In this document: positions 18,251-33,116 of the stretch, one piece after another
How positions within the stretch are numbered: the stretch's first letter is position 1
Layout: every line of letters starts with the position of its first letter
Assembly (NCBI RefSeq): GCF_000359585.1
Contig: NZ_APMH01000022.1
Coordinates: forward strand, 1 to 36,367
Length of the DNA: 36,367 nucleotides
Direction: 5' to 3'
Origin: Clostridium tyrobutyricum DSM 2637 = ATCC 25755 = JCM 11008
Lineage (GTDB): Bacteria; Bacillota; Clostridia; Clostridiales; Clostridiaceae
Notes under the pieces: generated by a model
What the model saw: the letters and a program-made list of their open reading frames with translations, nothing else
The model's database searches: none
Told to the model about the DNA's origin: nothing
Position numbers and translations under genes: made by a program

Positions 18251-18292
18251 AGATAAGTGTGTTTTTGCTGTAAAAATACAGGAGGTATATTT

Positions 18293-19342
18293 ATGAAGGG
18301 AAAGCTTATATTAGAAAATGGACATATCTTTGAAGGTGAAGCTTTTGGGTATTTAGAAGATAGTATAGGAGAAGTAGTATTTAATACTGGAATGACAGGT
18401 TATGAAGAGATACTTACAGATCCATCTTATTATGGTCAAATTGTTGTAATGACATATCCACTTATAGGAAACTATGGAATAAACTTAAATGATATGGAGT
18501 CCTCAAAACCTACCGTCAAAGGTTTTATAGTTAGAGAAAATTGCCACAAATCCAGTAATTTCAGATCTGAATTAGAGCTTGAAGACTATTTGAAATTGAA
18601 TAAGATTATAGGAATTTCCGGAATTGATACAAGGGCACTTACAAGACTGCTTAGAAATAGTGGTACTATGAAGGGAATTATAACTGTTGAAAATTTAAGC
18701 TTTTCTGCTGTAAAAGATGAAATAAGATGTTTCTCAAATAAAAATGCAGTTTCTGAAGTTACAAGTAAAAATGTCTATTCAATAAATGGAACAGGTAAAC
18801 ACGTTGCTATTTTGGATTTCGGAATAAAAAACAGTATAATAAAATCATTTGCAGACAGAAAATGCAAGATTACTGTATTTCCATCATTTACTCCTGCAAA
18901 AGATGTATTGAAAGTAAATCCTGACTTGATTTTCTTGTCTAATGGACCGGGAGATCCATGTGATCTTAAACATGAAATAGAAAATATAAAACAACTTATA
19001 GGAAAAAAACCTATCGTTGGAATATGTCTTGGACATCAACTTTTAGCATTGGCTCTTGGTGGAGAAACATCAAAGCTGAAATTTGGTCATAGGGGATGCA
19101 ATCATCCTGTTAAAAATCTGGATACAAATAGAGTTTATATAACTTCACAAAACCATGGATATTATGTGAATAAACTTCCACAGGACATGGAGATTACTCA
19201 TGTTAGTGTAAATGACAATACTGTTGAAGGTATGAGACATAAAAAATTACCCATATTTTCAATACAGTTTCATCCGGAAGCTGGGCCGGGACCAGCAGAT
19301 AATAATTACATATTTGATGAATTTATGAAGTATTCACTTTAA
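18293..19342 (+). CDS. carA: Carbamoyl-phosphate synthase small (glutaminase) subunit
   Basis: A 349-residue subunit that hydrolyses glutamine and passes ammonia to CarB. The N-terminal CarA-specific domain (KLILENGHIFEGEAFG, GEVVFNTGMTGYEEILTDPSY) is followed by a class I amidotransferase domain with the nucleophile motif GICLGHQ, then FGHRGCNHPV, TSQNHGY and FHPEAGPGP. The ATG at 18293 has GGAGG 7 bases upstream; an in-frame ATG at 18257 would add residues that overlap the leader. The coding region ends 31 bases before carB. The PyrR-type leader implies the product is used mainly for pyrimidine synthesis. Confidence 0.96.
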   Translation: MKGKLILENGHIFEGEAFGYLEDSIGEVVFNTGMTGYEEILTDPSYYGQIVVMTYPLIGNYGINLNDMESSKPTVKGFIVRENCHKSSNFRSELELEDYLKLNKIIGISGIDTRALTRLLRNSGTMKGIITVENLSFSAVKDEIRCFSNKNAVSEVTSKNVYSINGTGKHVAILDFGIKNSIIKSFADRKCKITVFPSFTPAKDVLKVNPDLIFLSNGPGDPCDLKHEIENIKQLIGKKPIVGICLGHQLLALALGGETSKLKFGHRGCNHPVKNLDTNRVYITSQNHGYYVNKLPQDMEITHVSVNDNTVEGMRHKKLPIFSIQFHPEAGPGPADNNYIFDEFMKYSL

Positions 19343-19373
19343 ATCATAAATAAGCTGAAAGGAGATAAATTAA

Positions 19374-22300
19374 ATGCCATTAAATAAAAATATTAAAAAA
19401 GTACTAGTTATAGGATCTGGTCCAATAATAATTGGCCAGGCAGCAGAATTTGATTATTCAGGTACTCAAGCATGTGAGTCTTTAAGAGAAGAAGGAATAG
19501 AAGTTGTACTTATAAACAGCAATCCTGCAACAATAATGACCGATAGGGAAATAGCAGATAAAGTATATATAGAGCCATTGACAGTGGAGTTTGTAGAAAA
19601 AGTTATAAAAGAAGAGAGACCAGATAGTCTATTGGCTGGAATGGGCGGACAGACAGCATTAAATCTTACGGTGGAATTGCATGAAAAAAAGATACTTCAA
19701 AAATACAATGTAAATATAATAGGAACTTCAATAGAGGCTATAGAAAAAGGCGAGGATAGAGAATTATTCAGGGATACTATGCAAAAGATAGGTCAGCCTG
19801 TAGTGGACAGTGCCATAATAACTGATATGGAAAGTGGCAGGAAATTTGCAAAGAAAATAGGTTATCCTGTTATAGTAAGGCCTGCTTATACTCTTGGAGG
19901 AACAGGCGGCGGAATAGCTAATGATGAATATGAATTGAATACTATACTGGAATCGGGATTGGAACTGAGTTCAATTCACCAAGTACTTCTTGAAAGAAGT
20001 ATAAAAGGATGGAAAGAAATAGAATATGAAGTTATGAGGGACAGCTTTGGAAATTGTATAACAGTATGTAATATGGAAAATATAGATCCTGTAGGAATCC
20101 ATACAGGGGATAGTATAGTTACAGCTCCAAGTCAGACTTTGTCTGATAAAGAATACCAGATGCTTAGAAGTGCATCTATAGATATAATAAATGAAGTTGG
20201 TATTGAAGGTGGATGTAACGTACAGTTGGCACTAAACCCCAATTCCTTTGAGTATGCAGTTATTGAAATAAATCCCAGGGTAAGCCGTTCATCTGCATTA
20301 GCATCAAAAGCTACAGGATATCCTATTGCTAAGGTTGCTGCAAAAATAGCTTTAGGATATGGACTGGATGAGATAGAAAATGCAGTTACAAAAAAAACAT
20401 TTGCATGTTTTGAACCGTCATTGGACTATGTAGTAGTAAAAATTCCAAAGTGGCCTTTTGATAAATTCCAGAATGCAGATAGGGAACTTGGAACAAAGAT
20501 GATGGCTACAGGTGAGATTATGGCAATAGGAAGCAATTTTGAAGCTGCACTTTTAAAGGGTATAAGATCTCTTGAAATAGGTGCCTATTCACTGGACTAT
20601 GAAAAATTTAAAAATTCTAGTCTTGAAGATTTAAAAAATATAATTATATATGCTGATGATGAGAGAATATTTGCATTGGCAGAAATGTTGAGACGAGGCT
20701 ATAGGGTAGAAAAATTATCGGAGATTACAGGAATTGATAAATTCTTTATATATAAGCTAAAGTGGATAATAGACCAGGAGGAAAAATTAAAAAACAGTAC
20801 TATAGATGATCTTGATAAAGATTGGTTAAGAATGCTTAAGAAAAAAGGATTTTCAGACAAAGGAATGGCTGATATGCTGAAAATATCACCAGATGAAATA
20901 TATAAGCTTAGGATCATATGGAATATAAGACCAGCTTATAAAATGGTAGATACTTGCGGTGGAGAATTTGAAGCACTTTCACCATATTATTATTCTACTT
21001 ACGAAGAACATGATGAAGTTAATGTATCAGAAAATAAAAAAGTAGTCGTAATAGGTTCTGGACCTATAAGAATAGGCCAGGGAATAGAATTTGACTATGC
21101 ATCTGTACATTGTATAAAAATACTTAGAAAACTTGGAATAGAGACTATAATAGTAAATAATAACCCCGAAACGGTAAGTACGGATTTTGATATTTCAGAT
21201 AAATTGTATTTTGAGCCTATAACTGAAGAAGAAGTTCTAAATATAATAGACAAGGAAAAGCCTTATGGGGTAATCCTTCAATTTGGAGGAGAGACTGCAA
21301 TTAAGCTGGCGGAGTTTTTAAAGGAGAAAAACATAGTTACGCTTGGTACTACAGCAGATCAAATAGATATGGCGGAAGATAGGGAAAAATTTGATGATTT
21401 GCTTGAAAGATTGGATATATCAAGACCTAAAGGAAAGGGTATCTGGTCTATCGAAGATGGTTTGAAGGAAGCCAAAAGAGTTGGATTTCCAGTGCTTGTA
21501 AGACCTTCATATGTACTTGGTGGTCAGGGTATGGAGATAACTTATAATGAAGATGAATTGACATATTATTTATCAAAGGCCTTTGTAAAAGATAAAAAGA
21601 ATCCTATATTGATAGATAAATATTTGATGGGAAGAGAAATAGAAGTAGATGCAATATGTGATGGAGAAGATGTATTAATACCAGGCATCATGGAACATTT
21701 AGAAAGGGCAGGTGTACATTCAGGTGATAGTATAACTATGTATCCAACTCAGAATGTTGATGATGATATGAAGTCAAGAATACTGGATTATACTAAAAAG
21801 TTGGCACTTGGCATAGGAATCCATGGAATGATAAATATACAGTTTATAGAATATAGAGGTGAATTGTATGTAATAGAAGTCAATCCTAGAGCCTCAAGGA
21901 CAGTTCCTTATATAAGTAAAGTGAGTAATGTTCCTATTGTAGATATAGCAACCAAGGTAATGCTGGGACAAAAACTTAAGGAAATAGGATATGGCGTTGG
22001 AATTTCAAAAGAGCCTGATATAGTGGCAGTAAAAGTACCTGTATTTTCAACCCAAAAGCTTCCAAATGTCGAAGTTTCACTGGGACCTGAAATGAGGTCT
22101 ACAGGAGAAGTCCTAGGAGTTGGAAAAACACTTACGGAAGCACTTTACAAAGGATTTGTAGCATCCAAAATGTTTTCTTACAATAAAATAGATACTATAC
22201 TTGCAACTATAAGTGACCATGACAAGGAAGAGTTTTTACCCATAGCTAAAGAAATAAATAAGTTGGGTATAAAATTTGCCGCAACTAAAAATACTTCAAA

Positions 22301-22580
22301 GCTATTGATGGATAATGGAATAGAAGTTAAAGAAGTGAGAAAGGTCAATGAGGAAAGACCTAATATTATAGATATAATAAAAAATGAAGAAGTAGATTTG
22401 GTAGTGAATACTCCAACAAAGGGAAATGACTCCACAAGAGATGGATTCCATATAAGAAGAGCTGCAATTGAGAGAAATATAGAGGTTATAACTTCATTGG
22501 ATACATTTAAAGCAATGGCTTATGTAAAATCCAAAAATATAAATATCGATACTTTAGACATATTTTCAGAATATAAATAG
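19374..22580 (+). CDS. carB: Carbamoyl-phosphate synthase large subunit
   Basis: A full-length 1068-residue subunit with two homologous ATP-grasp halves. The first half (1-400) starts [23 protein letters not shown] and makes carboxyphosphate; the linker region is about 400-550. The second half starts again at [21 protein letters not shown] (about 552) and phosphorylates carbamate. The C-terminal allosteric domain (about 935-1068, [20 protein letters not shown]) is of the MGS type, where UMP or ornithine usually bind. No frameshift is seen. A GGAGAT site precedes the ATG. It is in an operon with carA; no terminator is evident after it. Confidence 0.97.
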
Positions 22581-23314: not shown

Positions 23315-24520
23315 ATGTTTGTTACTTGTAAAAGTATGTTAAATTTGCCTGGCCTTGAAGAAATGAAGATAGTAGCTGGAAAAAACGGTTTAAATAGACC
23401 TATTAGCTGGGTTCATGTAGTTGAACTTACGGATGTTGCCAAATGGGTAAAGGGTGGGGAACTTTTGTTTACTACTGGAGTAGCTATCGGAAATAATACA
23501 GAAATACTATTAAAATTTGTAAAAGATATTAATATGAGAAAATTATCAGGGCTTGTTATTAATGTAGGACCCTATATTAAAGAAACTCCAAAGAAAGTTA
23601 TAGAATTTGCAAATAGTGTTGATTTTCCAATATTTGAGCTGCCATTTCAAGTTAGATTAATAGATGTAACACAAAATATATGCAGAAATATATTCACTCA
23701 AAAATTAGAAAAACAATCCATGAACAATTTTATGAAGGAAATAATATTTGAAGATATAAAAATTACTGAAGAAGTATTAAATAGAGCAAATTTGTATGGA
23801 TATAATCCAAATAAATTTTATTGTGCCATGGTAGTAGATATTGATGGTTTTATAGATACGTCAAAAGGAGATATAATCTCCAATATAAACAATAATATAC
23901 AAGAAATTGTGGATATGGTAATGCATAAAAACAATAAGAAATATCTCTATGCCATCCAAAGTGATACGTTTTTTTTCATGGTACCTTTAGATGATATGAG
24001 TGATATTGAAGATCATATAAAATATATAGCTGAATCTGTAAAAAAAGAAATTATTACAAATATAAAGCCTATAACTGTAAGTATAGGAACAGGTGGAATT
24101 TGCAATGATTTAAGAAATTTTAATAAAGTTATTTTGGAAGCAAGAAAGGCATTGAAAACAGCAAAAATATATAAAAAAACTAACTGTATAGTAAATTACA
24201 AGGAGATTGGTATATTTAGATTATTCCTTGATATGAATAATCATGTAGAAATGGAGAATATATTTTATGAAAATTTGGGAAAATTAAAAAGTTATGATGA
24301 GAAAAATTCTTCTGATTTAATGGAAACTTTAATTACATATTTAAAACAAAATAGAAATCTTGGAAATACGGCTGAAAAATTATATATTCACAGGAACACT
24401 ATAAAATATAGAATTAAAAGGATTGAAGAAATACTAGGCTGTGATCTAAAAGATGAAAATACTGTTTTTGACATCAAGTTATCCATAAAGATTGGAATAT
24501 TTTTAAATTCAATACATTGA
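23315..24520 (+). CDS. PucR-family transcriptional regulator of the pyrimidine catabolic operon (inferred)
   Basis: A 401-residue regulator with the PucR N-terminal domain (about 5-125: LEEMKIVAGKNGLNRPISWVHVVE, then WVKGGELLFTTGVAIG). A middle GGDEF-like/CdaR-type region spans about 155-300. The C-terminal PucR helix-turn-helix (about 336-397) reads LITYLKQNRNLGNTAEKLYIHRNTIKYRIKRIEEILG, split here by two gaps of context. This family activates purine or amino-compound catabolic genes in response to a metabolite. It lies immediately upstream of, and points toward, the reductive pyrimidine degradation operon, so it most likely controls that operon; a candidate operator is at 24611-24644. The ATG follows GGAGATG. 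Confidence 0.87.
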   Translation: MFVTCKSMLNLPGLEEMKIVAGKNGLNRPISWVHVVELTDVAKWVKGGELLFTTGVAIGNNTEILLKFVKDINMRKLSGLVINVGPYIKETPKKVIEFANSVDFPIFELPFQVRLIDVTQNICRNIFTQKLEKQSMNNFMKEIIFEDIKITEEVLNRANLYGYNPNKFYCAMVVDIDGFIDTSKGDIISNINNNIQEIVDMVMHKNNKKYLYAIQSDTFFFMVPLDDMSDIEDHIKYIAESVKKEIITNIKPITVSIGTGGICNDLRNFNKVILEARKALKTAKIYKKTNCIVNYKEIGIFRLFLDMNNHVEMENIFYENLGKLKSYDEKNSSDLMETLITYLKQNRNLGNTAEKLYIHRNTIKYRIKRIEEILGCDLKDENTVFDIKLSIKIGIFLNSIH

Positions 24521-24757: not shown

Positions 24758-25906
24758 ATGAATTATTCCATATTTCAATCTCCTAGGGATATACTCTATG
24801 GACAAGATACAGTAAATTTGGTAGGTGAAAAGGCTATAAAATTTGGAAAGAAAGTTATGATAATTACAGGAAAACATTCTTCTAAAAAAACTGGAGCATT
24901 GGACAAGGTTCTTGACAGTTTGAAGAAAAATAATCTGGATTTTGTAGTTTTTAATGATATTGAATCAGACCCGAGTGCAAACACAGTAAGAAAAGGAGTG
25001 GAAGTAGCCGGAGAAAATGGTATAGATATAATAGTAGCTTTAGGAGGAGGAAGTGCATTGGATGCTTCCAAAGCTATAAGCATGGTGGCTTCTAATGGAG
25101 GAGATATTGTAGATTATGAAGATAATATTCCTCATAAAGAGGGAATCCCGATAATAGCAGTTCCCACTACTGCAGGTACAGGCAGTGAAGTAAGTAAATT
25201 TTCTATAATAACGGATACTGATAGAAAAATAAAAATGTTGATTGCAAATGATTTATTGATACCTAAAGTAGCAATTTTAGATCCGAAACTTACTTTAATG
25301 ATGCCTCCTAGTGTTACAGCTGCCACTGGTATGGATGCCTTTACTCACGCTATTGAAGCATATATATCAAAAGCTTCCCAGAGGACTTCCGATTTATATG
25401 CTATAAAAGCTATAGAACTTATAAGCAGAAATTTGGCGAAAGCAGTATTAAAGGGAGATGATTTAGAAGCCAGAGAAAATATGATGGTTGGGCAAATGTA
25501 TGCAGGATTAGCTTTTACCAATTCTTCTACAGCACTAGTTCATTCTATGTCAAGGCCTCTTGGTGCGTATTATGGAGTCCCTCATGGACTTGCTAATGCA
25601 TTGCTTCTTCCAGAAGTTATGAAGTTTAACAGAGCTGCTTGTGCAGATAGATTTAAGGCGATTGCAGCAGCTATGGGAGAAAATATACATGGAAAATCCA
25701 CAAGAGAAATTAGTTATATGACTATAGATACTATAAAGAATGTATTTTTGGAAACTGGATTACCAACTAAGCTAAAAGAGGTTGGAGTTGATGAAAGTAA
25801 TTTTGAAAACATGGCTGAAGATGCCATAAAGAGCAGGACTACTTTACTTAATCCAAGAAAGCCAACGGTAGAGCAGCTTATAGAAATATATAAAACCATA
25901 TATTAA
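24758..25906 (+). CDS. Iron-containing alcohol dehydrogenase, probable malonate semialdehyde reductase
   Basis: A 382-residue group III (Fe) dehydrogenase. The nucleotide-binding ALGGGSALDASKA (95-106), VPTTAGTGSEVS (135-146) and metal ligands D193, H197 (GMDAFTHAIEAY), H262 (LVHSMSRPLGA) and H276 (GVPHGLANALL) are all present. On its own it could be a butanol, 1,3-propanediol or 4-hydroxybutyrate-type dehydrogenase. Its place as first gene of a uracil-degradation operon, 15 bases before a beta-alanine-type aminotransferase, suggests reduction of malonate semialdehyde to 3-hydroxypropionate. For thymine it would reduce the methyl analogue. A similar extension of the reductive pyrimidine pathway has been described in Gram-positive bacteria; the assignment here is by context. 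Confidence 0.85.
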   Translation: MNYSIFQSPRDILYGQDTVNLVGEKAIKFGKKVMIITGKHSSKKTGALDKVLDSLKKNNLDFVVFNDIESDPSANTVRKGVEVAGENGIDIIVALGGGSALDASKAISMVASNGGDIVDYEDNIPHKEGIPIIAVPTTAGTGSEVSKFSIITDTDRKIKMLIANDLLIPKVAILDPKLTLMMPPSVTAATGMDAFTHAIEAYISKASQRTSDLYAIKAIELISRNLAKAVLKGDDLEARENMMVGQMYAGLAFTNSSTALVHSMSRPLGAYYGVPHGLANALLLPEVMKFNRAACADRFKAIAAAMGENIHGKSTREISYMTIDTIKNVFLETGLPTKLKEVGVDESNFENMAEDAIKSRTTLLNPRKPTVEQLIEIYKTIY

Positions 25907-25921
25907 ACAGGGGGAATCAAA

Positions 25922-27286
25922 ATGGAAACTTTAAAAAATGATGAATTGGATTTGACAGCTGATACTATAAAGAAATATGATAGAAAATATAACTTGCATT
26001 CATGGAGTGCACAGAAAAAAATAGATCCACTTGTTATTACAAAAGCTGAAGGAATTTATTTTTGGGACAGTACAGGAAAAAAATATTTTGACATGTCATC
26101 TCAGTTGGTTAATTTAAATATAGGGCATGGAAACAGGAAAGTAATAGAGGCTATAAAGGAACAGGCAGATAAAATGCCATTTATGGGTCCTGGATATGCA
26201 GTTGATGTAAGAGCAAAACTTGCTGAAAGGGTAATAGAAAAAGCTCCGGACAATATGGATAAAGTATTTTTTACTTTGGGTGGTGCAGATGCCAATGAAA
26301 ATGCTATAAAAATAGCTAAAATGTATACAGGCAAATTTAAAATATTTTCACGATATAGATCTTATCATGGTGCGAGTTTTGGTGCCGCAAATTTAAGTGG
26401 TGAGCCAAGAAGATACACATGTGAGCCTGGAATTCCTGGATTTGTAAAATTTTTCGACCCATATATTTACAGGGAAAAAATAAAATTTGAAAGTGAAGAA
26501 AAGGCAACAGAATTTTATCTTGGAAAGTTGGAAGAACAGCTTATATATGAAGGTACTGATAAAGTGGCAGCTGTGTTTATAGAAACTATAACTGGAAGTA
26601 ATGGAGTAATTATTCCACCAAAAGGATATTTACAGGGAATAAGAAGATTATGTGACAAATATGGAATACTCATGATATGTGATGAAGTCATGGCTGGTTG
26701 GGGAAGAACAGGAGAATGGTTTGCCTGCAACAACTGGAATGTAAAACCTGATATAATTACCTTTGCAAAAGGAATTACTTGTGGATATGTGCCACTTGGA
26801 GGTGTTTTGGTAGATAAAAAAATAGCAGAATATTTTGACGATAATGTACTTATGTGTGGACTTACTTATAATGCACATCCTTTAGCCTGTGCTGCAGGTT
26901 GTGCAACATTGGAAGTTTATGAAGAAGAAAAATTAATAGAAAATTCAAGAAATATGGGAGCTATTTTAGGTGAAAAGCTTGAAGAGTTAAAGGAAAAGCA
27001 TTCTAGTGTAGGAGATGTAAGATATATAGGCCTATTCTCAGCAGTAGAACTTGTTAAGGATAAAAATACTAGAGAAGCACTAGTACCTTATGGAAAAGAT
27101 CCAGAAGGAAGGATGACAAAAATTATTGGAATGCTTAAAGAAAAAGGATTTTCAACATATTCTCATGAAAATTCTATAATGATAGCTCCACCTCTTATCA
27201 TAAATAAGGAAGAACTGGAAGAGGCTTTGGATATTTTAGATGATGTAATGGATTCTGTTGATGAATATGTAGAAAAATTAAAATAA
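25922..27286 (+). CDS. Class III PLP aminotransferase, probable beta-alanine aminotransferase
   Basis: A 454-residue omega-amino-acid aminotransferase. The PLP lysine is K283 in ITFAKGITCGYVPLGG and the cofactor aspartate is D254 in MICDEVMAGWGRTGEW. SYHGASFGAANLSG (147-160) and TYNAHPLACAAG are also typical. The sequence resembles taurine/beta-alanine/4-aminobutyrate aminotransferases. Within this operon the expected reaction is beta-alanine (or 3-aminoisobutyrate) plus a keto acid to malonate semialdehyde, releasing the second pyrimidine nitrogen as an amino acid. Whether pyruvate or 2-oxoglutarate is the acceptor cannot be read. The ATG follows AGGGGG. It is 22 bases upstream of the M20 hydrolase start. 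Confidence 0.9.
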   Translation: METLKNDELDLTADTIKKYDRKYNLHSWSAQKKIDPLVITKAEGIYFWDSTGKKYFDMSSQLVNLNIGHGNRKVIEAIKEQADKMPFMGPGYAVDVRAKLAERVIEKAPDNMDKVFFTLGGADANENAIKIAKMYTGKFKIFSRYRSYHGASFGAANLSGEPRRYTCEPGIPGFVKFFDPYIYREKIKFESEEKATEFYLGKLEEQLIYEGTDKVAAVFIETITGSNGVIIPPKGYLQGIRRLCDKYGILMICDEVMAGWGRTGEWFACNNWNVKPDIITFAKGITCGYVPLGGVLVDKKIAEYFDDNVLMCGLTYNAHPLACAAGCATLEVYEEEKLIENSRNMGAILGEKLEELKEKHSSVGDVRYIGLFSAVELVKDKNTREALVPYGKDPEGRMTKIIGMLKEKGFSTYSHENSIMIAPPLIINKEELEEALDILDDVMDSVDEYVEKLK

Positions 27287-27308
27287 AAATATGAGAAGGT
27301 GTATTAAA

Positions 27309-28535
27309 ATGAAAAATATAAATTGTGATAAAGATAGAATGAAAGATAAAATAGTTACATTTAGTAAATTTGGTGATACAGGAAGAGGTGGAATAACAAG
27401 ACTTGCATTATCAGAAGCCGACCTTAAAGCAAGATCAGAATTTACAAAGAGAATGAAAGCACTAGGGGCGGAAATTATAACAGATGATATGGGAAATATG
27501 TATGCTACTTTCAAAGGAGCAGAGGATCTTCCACATATTGCGATGGGTTCACATTGTGATTCTGTAGTGCAAGGTGGAAATTATGATGGTATTTTAGGAG
27601 TAATGACAGCTATGGAAGCAGCTGAAACTATTGTCACAGAAAATATACCTCACCGTCATCCAATTACAGTCATGATCTGGACTAATGAAGAAGGAGCACG
27701 TTTTGATCCTGCAATGATGTCATCTGGTGTTATTACGGGTAAATTTGACAAGGAAAAGATGCTGGCATCAAAAGATGTAGAAGGTGTGACTTTTGGTGAA
27801 GCTTTGGATGCAAGTGGTTACAAGGGCGATGAAAGTAACAGGATAAATCCTAAGGATTATATGGCTCTTTTGGAACTTCACATTGAACAGGGGCCAGTTC
27901 TTGAATCCAAAAAAATGGATATAGGTGTTGTAGAAGGCGTTGTTGGAATGGTAAATTATGAATTCGAATTTATAGGACAGGCTGGACACGCAGGAACTGT
28001 TCCACAGAAGATGAGAAAGGATGCTCTTTTAGCAGCTTCTGAAGCCATTCAATATCTTCACAGAGAACTTGATAAGCTTGATGATAAGCTTGTATATACT
28101 ACTGGTAGAATTAATTGTTCACCAAATGTACATACGATTATACCAGATGATGTTAAATTTACTTTGGATGCAAGACATCAGGATCCCAAAGTAATACAAC
28201 AGGTAGTTGAAATTATCAGGAACATTCCTTCTGAGCTTGCAAAATGTAAAGTTAGCTATAGAGAATTATGGTCACGTAAAACCATCAGCTTCAACAAAGA
28301 ACTGGTAGATTTAGTTGAAAAAAATGCAAATGAATATGGATATTCAAATATGAGAATGTATAGTGGGCCAGGACATGATGCTCAATTTGCAGCTGACATG
28401 CTCCCTGTAACTATGATATTTGTTCCAAGTATCGGAGGAAATAGTCATTGTGAAATAGAGAAAACTCCTGTTGATAATTGTTTAAAGGGAGCTAATGTAC
28501 TTCTCAGAACTATATTGGACATTGATAAAAAATAA
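27309..28535 (+). CDS. M20-family carbamoyl-amino-acid hydrolase, probable beta-ureidopropionase
   Basis: A 408-residue di-metal amidohydrolase of the N-carbamoyl-L-amino acid hydrolase / allantoate amidohydrolase / beta-ureidopropionase group. Metal motifs are GSHCDSVVQGGNYDG, the catalytic pair in WTNEEGARF, LELHIEQGPVLE, and the C-terminal NSHCEIEKTP. GPGHDAQFAADM and the substrate-binding TGRINCSPNVHTIIP are also typical. In this operon it should hydrolyse N-carbamoyl-beta-alanine (from dihydrouracil) to beta-alanine, CO2 and ammonia. I use the ATG at 27309 because AAGGTG lies 9 bases upstream; an in-frame ATG at 27291 precedes that site. Confidence 0.9.
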   Translation: MKNINCDKDRMKDKIVTFSKFGDTGRGGITRLALSEADLKARSEFTKRMKALGAEIITDDMGNMYATFKGAEDLPHIAMGSHCDSVVQGGNYDGILGVMTAMEAAETIVTENIPHRHPITVMIWTNEEGARFDPAMMSSGVITGKFDKEKMLASKDVEGVTFGEALDASGYKGDESNRINPKDYMALLELHIEQGPVLESKKMDIGVVEGVVGMVNYEFEFIGQAGHAGTVPQKMRKDALLAASEAIQYLHRELDKLDDKLVYTTGRINCSPNVHTIIPDDVKFTLDARHQDPKVIQQVVEIIRNIPSELAKCKVSYRELWSRKTISFNKELVDLVEKNANEYGYSNMRMYSGPGHDAQFAADMLPVTMIFVPSIGGNSHCEIEKTPVDNCLKGANVLLRTILDIDKK

Positions 28536-28621: not shown

Positions 28622-30106
28622 ATGGAACAAGCTGTAGATAAAAAAGTTCATGAACTGGATATGGAAGACAATTCAATAATAAAAGAAAGCAAGCTTTATA
28701 ATGATGATATTGCTCCAGTAGCAGTCAAAGATAGGACTTGGAATACCTATAATTTCACAGCTCTCTGGGTAGGTATGGCACATTGTATACCTACATATAT
28801 GATGGCAGGAAGCTTAATAGCTCTTGGCATGAACTGGAAACAGGCATTATTTACTATTACTATCGGTAATCTTATAGTTTTGATACCAATACTTTTAAAC
28901 GCACATCCTGGTACTAAGTACGGAATTAATTTTCCAGTGTTTTCAAGAGCATCTTTTGGAGTATTTGGTGCGAACATACCTGCAATACTTAGGGCGGTTG
29001 TAGCATGTGGATGGTTTGGTATAAATACCTATATTGGGGGAAGTGCACTTAATGTATTGCTTTCAGCCATAATACCGGGATGGAAGACCCTCGGGGGAAG
29101 TTTTCAAATAGCTGGTTTGAGTTTGTCGGCAGGAATTACATTTATGATATTCTGGGCTCTTGAAATGTTTGTTATATTCAAGGGAATGGAACAGCTTAAA
29201 AAATTTGAGAACTGGGCAGCTCCACTGGTATTGGTTCTTGCCCTAGTTTTAATGATTTGGGCAATTTCATCTGCACATGGTTTTGGCCCTCTTTTAAGTG
29301 AAGGTGGAAAATTGAAAACTATGGGAAGTTTTATGAAAGTATTTCCAGCGTCGCTTACAAGTATGATAGGATTTTGGGCAACTCTTTCATTGAATATACC
29401 GGATTTTACGAGATATGCAAAGGGGCAGAAAGAACAAGTTATAGGTCAGGCTATAGGTCTTCCAGTAACTATGACAATATTCTCTGCTATGGGAATAATA
29501 ATAACTTCTGCTACCGCTGTAATATATGGTCAAAGTATGTGGGATCCAGTGCAGATAATATCTAAATTCACTAATCCTATAGTAATATTTATTGGATTCT
29601 TCGGTATAGTAGTAGCATCCTTGTCTGTTAATATAGCTGCCAATATTGTATCACCTGCAAATGACTTTTCAAATGTGGCTCCAAAATATATAAGTTTCAA
29701 AATGGGTGGACTTATTACAGGAATAATAGGAATACTTATAATGCCATGGAAGCTGCTTGCAGATCCAAGTGGATATATATATTCATGGCTTGACACATAT
29801 TCTGGAATTTTAGGACCGGTGGCTGCAATAATTATATGTGACTACTGGATTGTAAAGAGAAAAAAATTGAACTTGAAGGATTTATATATGACTAAAGGAG
29901 ATTATACTTATTCTAAAGGATTTAATCCAAAGGCAATTATTGCACTGGCAATAGGAATTTTTGCAGCATTAATAGGAAAGATTGTACCCGGATTAAGTGG
30001 ATTGTTCAGTTATGCATGGTTTGTAGGATTTGGTGTATCTTTTGTAGTATATTATGTATTAAATATATCTTCTGTAAAGAGTAAGAATATGGATGAAGCT
30101 GTTTAA
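28622..30106 (+). CDS. NCS1-family nucleobase permease (uracil/hydantoin/allantoin type)
   Basis: A 494-residue integral membrane transporter with about 12 hydrophobic segments. Family marks are the N-terminal VKDRTWNTYNFTALWVGMAHCIPTYM split over TM1, NAHPGTKYGINFPVFSRASFG, RAVVACGWFGINTYIGG and NIPDFTRYAKGQ. It imports a nucleobase or related ring by sodium or proton symport. The operon suggests uracil and/or thymine, or dihydropyrimidines and hydantoins. An acidic N-terminal tail of about 30 residues precedes the first membrane segment. GAAGAAGGG lies before the ATG. Confidence 0.92.
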   Translation: MEQAVDKKVHELDMEDNSIIKESKLYNDDIAPVAVKDRTWNTYNFTALWVGMAHCIPTYMMAGSLIALGMNWKQALFTITIGNLIVLIPILLNAHPGTKYGINFPVFSRASFGVFGANIPAILRAVVACGWFGINTYIGGSALNVLLSAIIPGWKTLGGSFQIAGLSLSAGITFMIFWALEMFVIFKGMEQLKKFENWAAPLVLVLALVLMIWAISSAHGFGPLLSEGGKLKTMGSFMKVFPASLTSMIGFWATLSLNIPDFTRYAKGQKEQVIGQAIGLPVTMTIFSAMGIIITSATAVIYGQSMWDPVQIISKFTNPIVIFIGFFGIVVASLSVNIAANIVSPANDFSNVAPKYISFKMGGLITGIIGILIMPWKLLADPSGYIYSWLDTYSGILGPVAAIIICDYWIVKRKKLNLKDLYMTKGDYTYSKGFNPKAIIALAIGIFAALIGKIVPGLSGLFSYAWFVGFGVSFVVYYVLNISSVKSKNMDEAV

Positions 30107-30168: not shown

Positions 30169-30192
30169 ACATTATTTTAAGAGGTGATAATT

Positions 30193-31557
30193 TTGGATGT
30201 AATTATAAAAAATGGTATTATAATAACAGCATTGGAAACTTATAAAGCAGATATAGGAATAAAAAATGGGAAAATTGTAACAATAGCATCTAAGTTGGAT
30301 GATAGTAGTGCAGAGATAATTGATGCATCAGGAAAATATGTACTCCCAGGTGCTATAGATGGACACACTCATCTTCAAATGCCTTTTGGTGGTACAGTAT
30401 CTTCCGATAGCTATGAGGCAGGTACGAGGGCTGCAGCTTGTGGAGGAACAACTACAGTTTTTGATTTTGCTATTCAACAAAAAGGACATGGTTTAATACA
30501 GACAGCCAAGGAGAGAGATGCTCTTTGTGCACCACAGGCATGTGTAGACTATGCATTTCATGTAGTTATAACTGATTTAAGACCTGAAATTTTAGATGAA
30601 TTCCAGGATTCTGTAAATTTTGGTGTTCCGAGTTTTAAAGTATTCATGGTATATAAAAAAGAGGGATTAATGGCCGATGACGGTATGCTTTACAGTGTAT
30701 TGAAAAAATCAAAAGAAGTAGGGGCTATATTGGCAGTTCATGCAGAAAATCCTGATTTAATAGATATAAGAACTGAAAAATTCTTAAAAGAAGGCAAGAC
30801 ATCTGCATGGTATCATTATTTATCAAGACCTGAATTTGTAGAAGCTGAAGCGGACAAGAGGGCAATACATTGGGCCAAACAACTTGATGCACCACTTTAT
30901 ATAGTTCATCTTGCGAATAAAGAGGGAATGGAAGAAGTTAAAAAAGCGAGAGATGAGGGATATGAAATATATGCAGAAACATGTCCACAATATTTATATT
31001 TTACAAATGAAGTATTTAAAAGAGAGGATGGAAGAAATTTTGTATGTTCTCCACCTATGAAAGGACAAGAAAGTCAGGATGCACTTTGGAAAGGAATAAA
31101 AACTGGTGATATTGCTACAATTGCCACAGATCATTGCCCATTTCAAAGTTATGAAAAAGATTGGGGCAAGGATGATTTCACCAAAATACCAAATGGCTGT
31201 GCCGGTATAGAAAATATGTATCCTTATATGCTTAGCGAGGCTAATAAGGGAAGATTATCATTTAATAAAGTAGTTGAAATTTGTTCTACAAATCCAGCAA
31301 AGATATATGGGTGTGCACCTCAAAAAGGAAGTATTACAATAGGTGGAGATGCTGATATTGTAATATATGATCCAACAAAGGAATTTACTATATCCCAGAA
31401 CAATATGCACTCCGATTCAGATCATACTATATGGGAAGGTGTAAAACTAAAAGGATATCCTTTTATGACATTTTCAAGAGGAAAATTGGTTTATAAAGAT
31501 GGCGAATTTTTAGGAAAACCTGGCTGGGGAAAATTTTTAAGAAGAAAAAGAAAATAA
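30193..31557 (+). CDS. hydA: Dihydropyrimidinase / D-hydantoinase
   Basis: A 454-residue amidohydrolase that opens the ring of dihydrouracil or dihydrothymine to N-carbamoyl-beta-amino acids. Metal motif GAIDGHTHLQMPFGG (H58, H60), the carboxylated lysine K149 in SFKVFMVYKKEG, VHAENPDLI, YIVHLANKEG and ATDHCPF cover the binuclear site. CPPMKG-type substrate loop SPPMKGQESQDALW is present. Length is normal. The start is taken as TTG at 30193, 6 bases after AGGTG; the GTG at 30184 overlaps that site. It lies between the permease and the dihydropyrimidine dehydrogenase genes. Confidence 0.94.
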   Translation: MDVIIKNGIIITALETYKADIGIKNGKIVTIASKLDDSSAEIIDASGKYVLPGAIDGHTHLQMPFGGTVSSDSYEAGTRAAACGGTTTVFDFAIQQKGHGLIQTAKERDALCAPQACVDYAFHVVITDLRPEILDEFQDSVNFGVPSFKVFMVYKKEGLMADDGMLYSVLKKSKEVGAILAVHAENPDLIDIRTEKFLKEGKTSAWYHYLSRPEFVEAEADKRAIHWAKQLDAPLYIVHLANKEGMEEVKKARDEGYEIYAETCPQYLYFTNEVFKREDGRNFVCSPPMKGQESQDALWKGIKTGDIATIATDHCPFQSYEKDWGKDDFTKIPNGCAGIENMYPYMLSEANKGRLSFNKVVEICSTNPAKIYGCAPQKGSITIGGDADIVIYDPTKEFTISQNNMHSDSDHTIWEGVKLKGYPFMTFSRGKLVYKDGEFLGKPGWGKFLRRKRK

Positions 31558-31586: not shown

Positions 31587-31907
31587 ATGAAAAATCATAA
31601 AAAATTCAATGAGCTTATAGAAGAGTCATCACGATGTCTTTTGTGTTATGATCCCCCCTGCAGTAAGGCATGTCCAGTTGGAAAGGAGCCAGCGGCTATA
31701 ATTATGTCCTTGAGATTTAAAAATTATGAAGGTGCTTCTTATAAAGCTATTGAATATTTAAAAAAGGCAGGACAATGTGGCAAAGCTTGTAACAACAAAA
31801 TGTATTGTCAGAGAAATTGTATAAGGGGTAAAATAGACAGATCCATAAAAATAAAGATTGTACAAGAATCATTATACAAAGGGAATGTATATGAGGAGGT
31901 GAAATAG
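31587..31907 (+). CDS. Stand-alone two-cluster [4Fe-4S] subunit (PreT/DPD N-terminal domain only)
   Basis: A 106-residue protein equal to the N-terminal Fer4_20 domain of PreT, GltD and mammalian dihydropyrimidine dehydrogenase, with nothing after it. It has CLLCYDPPCSKAC (C17, C20, C25, C29) and CGKACNNKMYCQRNC (C64, C68, C74, C78). Q93 in IKIKIVQ aligns with the glutamine that ligates one cluster in DPD (Q156 of the pig enzyme). All eight expected cluster ligands are therefore kept. The roughly 300-residue FAD/NAD(P)H domain of PreT is absent, and no remnant is found downstream because the stop abuts the ATG of preA. Probable role: electron relay to the FMN/Fe-S subunit from an external donor such as ferredoxin. 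GGGAGGAG lies 6 bases before the ATG. Confidence 0.9.
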   Translation: MKNHKKFNELIEESSRCLLCYDPPCSKACPVGKEPAAIIMSLRFKNYEGASYKAIEYLKKAGQCGKACNNKMYCQRNCIRGKIDRSIKIKIVQESLYKGNVYEEVK

Positions 31908-33116
31908 ATGAAAGATCTCTCTATAAAATTTTGTGGTGTAAAATGTGAAAATCCATTTTTCCTGTCATCATCTGTAGTTGGAAGCAACTATGAGATGTGT
32001 GCTAAAGCTTTTGAAATGGGCTGGGCTGGTATAGTATTTAAAACTATAGGATTTTATGTACCGGAAGAAGTATCTCCTAGATTTGATATCATTGGTAAGG
32101 AAAGTACTCCTTTTATCGGCTTTAAAAACATGGAACAGATTTCAGATCATCCATTGGAAGAAAATTTAAAATACATGAAAGCGCTTAAAGAGAGCTATCC
32201 GGATAAAGTTTTAGTAGCATCTATTATGGGTAGAACGGAAGAAGAATGGACTGAACTTGCAAAATTAGTTACAGAAATAGGATCTGATATAATCGAATGT
32301 AATTTTTCATGTCCTCAAATGGCTGAAAATTCTATGGGATCTGATGTAGGACAAAATCCTGAATTAGTAGAAAAGTACTGCAGTGCAGTAAGACGCGGAA
32401 CATCACTTCCGATACTTGCCAAAATGACACCAAATATTTCTGATATGGTAATTCCTGCAGTGGCTTCAGTGAAAGGTGGAGCAGATGCTATAGCTGCAAT
32501 TAATACTATAAAAAGTATAACAAGAGTGGATTTGAATAATTTCACTCCATATCCAATAATAGATGGAAAATCATCTGTATCTGGATATTCTGGAAAAGCT
32601 GTAAAACCAATAGCTCTTAGATTTATACATGATCTTGCTAAGAGCAATAAATTGAATGGAATTCCTATAAGCGGCATGGGTGGAATAGAAAACTGGGAAG
32701 ATGCAGTGGAATTTATGCTTCTTGGATGTTCCAATATTCAGATTACTACGGCTGTTATGCAGTATGGATATAGGATAATAAATGATTTAATTGATGGATT
32801 AAGTTTGTATATGGAGAAAAAAGGATTTGATAAATTAGAGGATTTGGTAGGTATAGCACTTGACAATATAGTTCCGGCAGAAGCACTTGATAGAAGTTAT
32901 ATAATATATCCGAAGTTTAAAAATGAAGATTGTGTAGGCTGTGGAAGATGTTACATATCCTGTTATGATGGTGGTCATCAGGCCATAAAATGGGATTATG
33001 AAAGCAGAAAACCCCAGCTTATTGAAGATAAATGTGTTGGATGTCATCTATGTGCAAATGTTTGCCCGGTGGCTGATATAACAATTGGAAACAAGAAATA
33101 CAAGGTTACCCTATAA
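31908..33116 (+). CDS. preA: Dihydropyrimidine dehydrogenase catalytic subunit PreA
   Basis: A 402-residue FMN enzyme that reduces uracil and thymine to the 5,6-dihydro forms. The FMN barrel has [18 protein letters not shown] with the catalytic acid C135 in the flexible loop, [33 protein letters not shown] and [12 protein letters not shown]. The C-terminal ferredoxin domain has two full 4Fe-4S motifs, C342/C345/C348/C352 and C376/C379/C382/C386. It is very close in plan to E. coli PreA. Its ATG directly follows the stop of the small Fe-S subunit, and its GGAGGTG site lies inside that gene, so the two are translationally coupled and likely form a complex. It is the last gene of the operon. Confidence 0.95.

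What the first reader, a model, noticed from the sequence alone, without database searches (positions are those of the whole stretch)
31587..33116. Dihydropyrimidine dehydrogenase with a stripped electron-input subunit
In E. coli, PreT (about 410 residues) passes NAD(P)H electrons through FAD and two N-terminal Fe-S clusters to PreA. Here the PreT position holds only the 106-residue two-cluster domain. It keeps seven or eight cysteine ligands and the unusual glutamine (Q93), and it is translationally coupled to an intact PreA. The FAD and NAD(P)H domains are gone. Because every ligand is conserved and the frame is cleanly ended, this looks like an evolved subunit, not decay. The simplest reading is a dihydropyrimidine dehydrogenase fed by ferredoxin, flavodoxin or another flavoprotein, coupling pyrimidine reduction to the low-potential electron pool of an anaerobe.
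Basis: partly seen in the sequence, partly recalled or inferred. Interest (0 to 1): 0.8.

Follow-up and report, generated by a model that had tools for sequence, protein, structure and literature searches.

The report
Ferredoxin-fed uracil reductase, split form
This clostridial uracil-degrading enzyme has lost the part that takes electrons from NAD(P)H and most likely draws them from ferredoxin instead; the same split enzyme was already described in a 2020 paper, so the find is real but not new.

Summary
A 106-residue two-cluster Fer4_20 protein (31587-31907) sits in frame, with no spacer, before an intact PreA (31908-33116), inside a uracil-degradation operon. No PreT was found in the genome, and no PreT-type FAD/NAD(P)H domain near PreA in 22 split or medium loci.

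The reading (evolved subunit, ferredoxin-fed) is well supported but already in print. Wang et al. 2020 (PMC7332683) showed that the fused homologue PydAc reduces uracil with reduced ferredoxin, and named this split version in C. pasteurianum. I found no assay of the split pair.

One supporting argument fails: Q93 is not conserved here. It is Q in 84 of 84 full-length PreT, but Q 8, H 8, M 2 of 18 split forms and Q in 0 of 26 fused forms. In pig DPD the glutamine binds the cluster next to FAD.

In passing I found a 252-258-residue form in four species that lacks exactly the NAD(P)H domain and keeps a degenerate FAD domain: a probable living intermediate. All 39 PreA without a full PreT fit one clade, though rooting is open. 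My joined mini-PreA model was too poor to test docking.

The parts
31587..31907 (+). Small N-terminal ferredoxin subunit (mini-PreT / separate Fdx1 ORF of split PydAc), 106 aa, two predicted 4Fe-4S clusters
31894..31900 (+). Ribosome-binding-like AGGAGGT for PreA, inside the end of the mini gene
   Evidence: read
31908..33116 (+). PreA / PydAc FMN domain plus C-terminal 8Fe ferredoxin domain, 402 aa, catalytic Cys135
30184..31557 (+). Dihydropyrimidinase (PydB), 523 bits to TIGR02033 (cut-off 393)
28622..30106 (+). NCS1 nucleobase:cation symporter (uracil uptake, inferred)
27291..28535 (+). M20 amidase / carbamoylase, likely ureidopropionase (PydC)
25922..27286 (+). Class III aminotransferase, likely beta-alanine aminotransferase (PydD)
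24758..25906 (+). Iron-containing alcohol dehydrogenase, likely malonic semialdehyde reductase (PydE)
23315..24520 (+). PucR-type regulator

Best explanation
A two-gene, ferredoxin-dependent dihydropyrimidine dehydrogenase: the split form of clostridial PydAc. The small subunit carries the two N-terminal 4Fe-4S clusters of DPD. It docks on the C-terminal ferredoxin domain of PreA, probably of the partner protomer in a 2+2 complex as in pig DPD. Reduced ferredoxin, made by pyruvate:ferredoxin oxidoreductase, gives electrons one at a time to the cluster that FAD feeds in the NAD(P)H enzymes (nFeS2). They pass through nFeS1, cFeS1 and cFeS2 to FMN, which reduces uracil while Cys135 supplies the proton. 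The other operon enzymes then take dihydrouracil to beta-alanine and malonic semialdehyde. The form arose by loss of the NAD(P)H-binding domain and then the FAD domain from a PreT ancestor. Shown here: the parts, the operon, the absence of PreT, and grouping with the fused enzymes (the kind shown to use ferredoxin). Inferred: complex shape, electron route, donor for this very pair, direction of evolution.
For: Fused homologue assayed with reduced methyl viologen and ferredoxin; the paper's introduction says not NAD(P)H, though the results I read show no NAD(P)H trial; split version named (PMC7332683). Mini has Fer4_20 only. Own genome: of 6 Fer4_20 matches, the others read as NfnB beside NfnA, GltD beside GltB, a 772-aa protein (two matches) beside a molybdopterin-type ORF, and an aldo/keto reductase below cut-off; none is PreT. 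In 22 split/medium loci the only families found in at least 21 are mini, PreA and dihydropyrimidinase; clostridial and E. coli PreT FAD/NAD(P)H domains match nothing at E 1e-3 except the medium subunit of L252 itself. Pyd-type dihydropyrimidinase (60% id or more) in the stretch held: split 17 of 18, medium 4 of 4, fused 26 of 28, full-length PreT 4 of 84. PreA without full PreT (39 rows) and with it (26 rows) separate at 100/99; held as one clade with distant outgroups they score 15.8 lnL better than the free tree (p-AU 0.859). Genome has two PFOR genes, RnfC and a 57-aa 2[4Fe-4S] ferredoxin. Electron order from a review (PMC8097209 passages).
Against: I found no assay of a split pair. The joined mini-PreA model had low confidence over the mini part (block pLDDT 37-60), so docking is untested. 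No ferredoxin gene lies in the operon. Flavodoxin-like genes exist too. The outgroup-rooted free tree put PreT inside the forms without it, which would favour repeated loss or a regain. The Q-to-H/M change could also be drift.
Confidence: 0.85

Rival explanations
1. Same enzyme, but flavodoxin, not ferredoxin, is the physiological donor, always or under iron limitation.
For: Own genome holds two short flavodoxin-family frames (143 and 152 aa).
Against: Fused PydAc works with ferredoxin (PMC7332683). No small gene other than mini is shared by most of the 22 split/medium loci next to PreA (families there outside the operon genes were not identified).
Confidence: 0.08
2. An unlinked NAD(P)H flavoprotein such as NfnB or GltD docks on the small subunit and restores a normal PreT in trans.
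For: NfnAB-like and GltBD-like genes are in the genome; 30 Pyr_redox_2 matches exist, most not identified further.
Against: NfnB and GltD carry their own Fer4_20 domain and sit beside their own partners; no PreT-type FAD/NAD(P)H domain is near PreA in 22 loci, apart from the medium subunit's own remnant.
Confidence: 0.04
3. The small gene is a decaying remnant and PreA works alone or not at all.
For: PreT remnants do exist elsewhere, e.g. the broken copy in L084.
Against: 22 positions are invariant over 17 split proteins, eight Cys among them; uninterrupted frames of 97-135 aa in the 18 split loci; constant place just before PreA.
Confidence: 0.01

Closest known systems
PydAc, ferredoxin-dependent dihydropyrimidine dehydrogenase of Clostridium chromiireducens, and its split variant in C. 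pasteurianum (Wang et al. 2020, PMC7332683)
   Same: FMN domain, two ferredoxin domains, no FAD/NAD(P)H domain, Pyd operon; the C. pasteurianum version has the same two-ORF split
   Different: The assayed enzyme is one ORF. In the fused relatives examined, position 93 is never Gln (0 of 26) and position 64 is a gap (26 of 26); of the four fused rows I printed, three have a Cys one column later (CxxC instead of CxxxC) and one does not
E. coli PreTA, NAD-dependent dihydropyrimidine dehydrogenase
   Same: PreA 65% identical (L205); Fer4_20 domain with the same cysteines
   Different: Has the FAD/NAD(P)H domain; falls on the other side of the PreA tree; 80 of 84 full-PreT loci show no Pyd-type dihydropyrimidinase in the stretch held, some of them short
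Pig/human DPD
   Same: Same four-cluster chain and FMN site by sequence
   Different: One chain with FAD and NADPH domains
Fd-GltS versus NADPH-GltS (GltBD)
   Same: Precedent for ferredoxin replacing the GltD-type FAD/NADPH module (PMC8097209 passages)
   Different: By that review Fd-GltS resembles the alpha subunit alone (FMN, one 3Fe-4S); here the two-cluster domain is kept

Membership tests
PydAc (ferredoxin-dependent DPD) | FMN (DHO_dh) domain plus C-terminal 8Fe ferredoxin domain | tested here: met
PydAc (ferredoxin-dependent DPD) | N-terminal two-cluster domain present, here as its own ORF | tested here: met
   PF14691; ligand census
PydAc (ferredoxin-dependent DPD) | No FAD/NAD(P)H domain in the polypeptides or nearby | tested here: met
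   for the polypeptides; for PreT-type domains nearby
PydAc (ferredoxin-dependent DPD) | No PreT-type subunit elsewhere in the genome | tested here: met
   genome 99.99% complete in 76 contigs
PydAc (ferredoxin-dependent DPD) | Lies in a Pyd gene cluster | tested here: met
PydAc (ferredoxin-dependent DPD) | PreA groups with fused PydAc rather than PreT-linked PreA | tested here: met
   (100/99, unrooted); the free tree with distant outgroups disagrees
PydAc (ferredoxin-dependent DPD) | Reduces uracil with reduced ferredoxin, not NAD(P)H | not testable with these tools
   needs purified protein
PreTA (NAD-dependent DPD) | FAD and NAD(P)H domains in the PreT subunit | tested here: not met
   106 aa, Fer4_20 only

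The most novel reading that the evidence does not exclude
Ferredoxin-fed DPDs arose once from a PreT-type enzyme, stepwise: first the NAD(P)H-binding domain was cut out, leaving a 250-residue subunit with a degenerate FAD domain that still survives in Clostridium, Oscillospiraceae and Pectinatus and may be a new docking or flavin module; then the rest was lost (mini), and in another branch mini and PreA fused. With FAD gone, the glutamine ligand of the entry cluster was released and replaced by His or Met, retuning the cluster so that ferredoxin can load it directly.
Probability: 0.35. Interest if true: 0.55.

Novelty: already known. Interest (0 to 1): 0.3.

Why it matters
It shows how an enzyme is rewired from NAD(P)H to the low-potential pool of anaerobes by deleting a module and keeping the wire. 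The series full PreT, medium, mini, fused makes that rewiring testable step by step. It also suggests that genes labelled 'NAD-dependent dihydropyrimidine dehydrogenase subunit PreA' in anaerobes (as the fused one on the Selenomonas plasmid) need not be NAD-dependent.

Tried and rejected
Structure of the joined mini-PreA chain: mean pLDDT 73.1, mini part 37-60 by block; not used as evidence. I did not run a fold search on it.

Rooting with four distant PreA rows gave a ladder with PreT nested inside the forms without it. A constrained tree with those 39 rows as one clade scored better, and without the four distant rows the split is 100/99. The root remains open; the long outgroup branch is a known hazard. 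The test of fused as one clade did not finish. Split alone as a clade: 22.8 lnL worse, p-AU 0.152, not rejected.

Decay of the small gene, a hidden PreT in the genome, and a linked PreT-type flavoprotein were looked for and not found. Of the 30 Pyr_redox_2 matches in the genome only those in Fer4_20 proteins were looked at further; other kinds of flavoprotein near the split loci were not searched for by family.

The 84 full-PreT rows include near-copies. L170 and L204 were called fused from their length and their N-terminal Cys pattern by eye; Pfam Fer4_20 does not match them, and they are not in the 26 of the ligand census.

Isoprene-reductase paper PMC10134865 (passages): a Fer4_20 protein, but with a FAD/NAD(P) domain; not this system. 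PMC11580864 (passages) treats DPYD split homologues; 'ferredoxin' does not occur in it. PMC13285125 only cites Wang et al. in its reference list as far as the search showed.

Full report
OBSERVATION. The window holds exactly what was described: a 106-aa ORF at 31587-31907 and a 402-aa ORF at 31908-33116. The first matches Pfam Fer4_20 (PF14691, E 2.7e-16) and no other Pfam family at E 0.001; the second matches DHO_dh, Fer4_21 and NCBIfam PreA NF006183 at 633 bits. The small protein has eight Cys and Q93. Pig DPD aligns ungapped over residues 11-79. PreA C135 aligns with pig C671, the catalytic residue according to PMC8097209 (passages). TAG and ATG abut in frame, and AGGAGGT precedes PreA.

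CONTEXT. Upstream on the same strand: dihydropyrimidinase, NCS1 permease, M20 amidase, class III aminotransferase, iron-containing alcohol dehydrogenase and a PucR regulator. This is the reductive pyrimidine (Pyd) pathway extended to malonic semialdehyde; the roles of aminotransferase and dehydrogenase are inferred from PydD/PydE as named in PMC7332683.

ALREADY IN PRINT. Wang et al. 2020 (PMC7332683; parts 1-3 of 4 read) purified PydAc of Clostridium chromiireducens, an FMN enzyme with two ferredoxin domains and no FAD/NADPH domain, and measured uracil reduction with reduced methyl viologen and with reduced ferredoxin. Their introduction says 'but not NAD(P)H'; the results I read describe no NAD(P)H trial. 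They write that a related variant in C. pasteurianum DSM 525 has the FMN and one ferredoxin domain in one ORF and the second ferredoxin domain in a separate ORF. That is this arrangement. They did not assay it. PMC12507026 (passages) extends the idea to UacX in uric acid degradation. Searches showed no later work on the split pair in the held library.

GENOME. Six Fer4_20 matches in the own genome: the window gene, NfnB next to NfnA, GltD next to GltB, a 772-aa protein with two matches, beside a molybdopterin-type ORF, and an aldo/keto reductase below cut-off. These names are my reading of the ORFs and neighbours, not family searches. No PreT. Two pyruvate:ferredoxin oxidoreductases, one RnfC over cut-off, a 57-aa 2[4Fe-4S] ferredoxin and flavodoxin-family frames are present.

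DISTRIBUTION. In the order, 225 genomes were searched; 56 have PreA over cut-off, in 59 loci. Classified: 17 split in 16 genomes (window included), 1 medium, 20 with full-length PreT, 20 fused, 1 broken PreTA left out. In an even sample of 391 genomes of the class, 22 have PreA over cut-off, and apart from the window's own genus no frame under 150 aa was among the listed matches (the list is cut). A scan of named genomes gave 465 relatives, of which the best 80 were kept: 11 split, 4 medium, 1 whole DPD-like fusion of 838 aa, 64 with full-length PreT. Named split carriers include C. luticellarii, C. ragsdalei, C. thailandense, C. acidisoli, C. akagii, C. algoriphilum and C. lacusfryxellense.

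PARTNER SEARCH. In 22 split/medium loci the FAD/NAD(P)H domains of a clostridial and the E. coli PreT find nothing at E 1e-3 except the medium subunit of L252 itself (E 3.5e-4). The families shared by at least 21 of 22 loci are mini, PreA and dihydropyrimidinase. A dihydropyrimidinase at least 60% identical to the window's is present in 17 of 18 split, 4 of 4 medium, 26 of 28 fused, but only 4 of 84 full-PreT loci (flanks differ in length, so these are lower bounds).

LIGANDS. The Cys at 17, 20, 25, 29, 74 and 78 are present in 18 of 18 split, 4 of 4 medium, 84 of 84 full PreT and 26 of 26 fused; Cys 68 in all but one fused; Cys 64 in all split, medium and full PreT. Fused rows have a gap at 64 (26 of 26); of the four printed, three carry a Cys one column later (CxxC), one does not. 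Position 93: full PreT Q 84 of 84; split Q 8, H 8, M 2 of 18; medium H 3, Q 1 of 4; fused Q 0 of 26, M 17 (all). The review (PMC8097209 passages) places the glutamine ligand on nFeS2, the cluster that takes electrons from FAD. So this ligand is fixed where the FAD domain is intact and free where it is not. I infer that the entry cluster is retuned; drift is not excluded.

TREES. Of 58 PreA of the order, rows without full PreT (split, medium, fused) and PreT-linked rows part at 100/99; with 65 rows including more medium forms and E. coli, again 100/99 and in 100% of 200 bootstrap trees. Adding four distant PreA, the free tree nests PreT inside the others, but the tree with those 39 rows as one clade is 15.8 lnL better (p-AU 0.859). 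Fused is one clade; split is not (3 changes), though split as one clade is not rejected (p 0.152). A single switch away from NAD(P)H, with the FAD remnant lost more than once, is the reading I prefer; the root is not settled.

MECHANISM AND VERDICT. Most likely a split, ferredoxin-dependent dihydropyrimidine dehydrogenase, with the route ferredoxin - nFeS2 - nFeS1 - cFeS1 - cFeS2 - FMN - uracil by analogy with DPD. Parts and context are shown; donor, docking and route for this pair are inferred. The docking model failed. The finding is real and correctly read, but already published as a kind.

Noticed in passing
[not shown]
   Followed up: partly
position 93 of the window small subunit and its relatives: The nFeS2 glutamine ligand is invariant (84 of 84) in full-length PreT and varies to His, Met and others in split, medium and fused forms.
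   Followed up: partly
L239 5959-8475: Bacterial 838-aa natural fusion Fer4_20 + Pyr_redox_2 + DHO_dh + Fer4_21, the same domain order as mammalian DPD, but its PreA part groups with PreTA rows of anaerobes.
   Followed up: no
L204 3701-5209 (Selenomonas ruminantium plasmid pSRC1), L170 1198-2691: Divergent fused enzymes without a FAD domain on a long branch; the plasmid one is annotated 'NAD-dependent ... PreA'. No dihydropyrimidinase in the stretches held; possibly UacX-like (guess).
   Followed up: partly
L084 7961-10476: Broken PreTA copy: PreT cut to 232 aa and PreA in two frames, in a genome that also has an intact PreTA (L093). Described only.
   Followed up: no
L209 (Deinococcus psychrotolerans plasmid): preA without a PreT gene beside it; an SDR oxidoreductase lies upstream and a dihydropyrimidinase downstream.
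   Followed up: no
window 18257-22580: Carbamoyl-phosphate synthase small and large chains end about 0.7 kb before the PucR gene of the Pyd operon, with an unassigned 201-aa ORF between.
   Followed up: no
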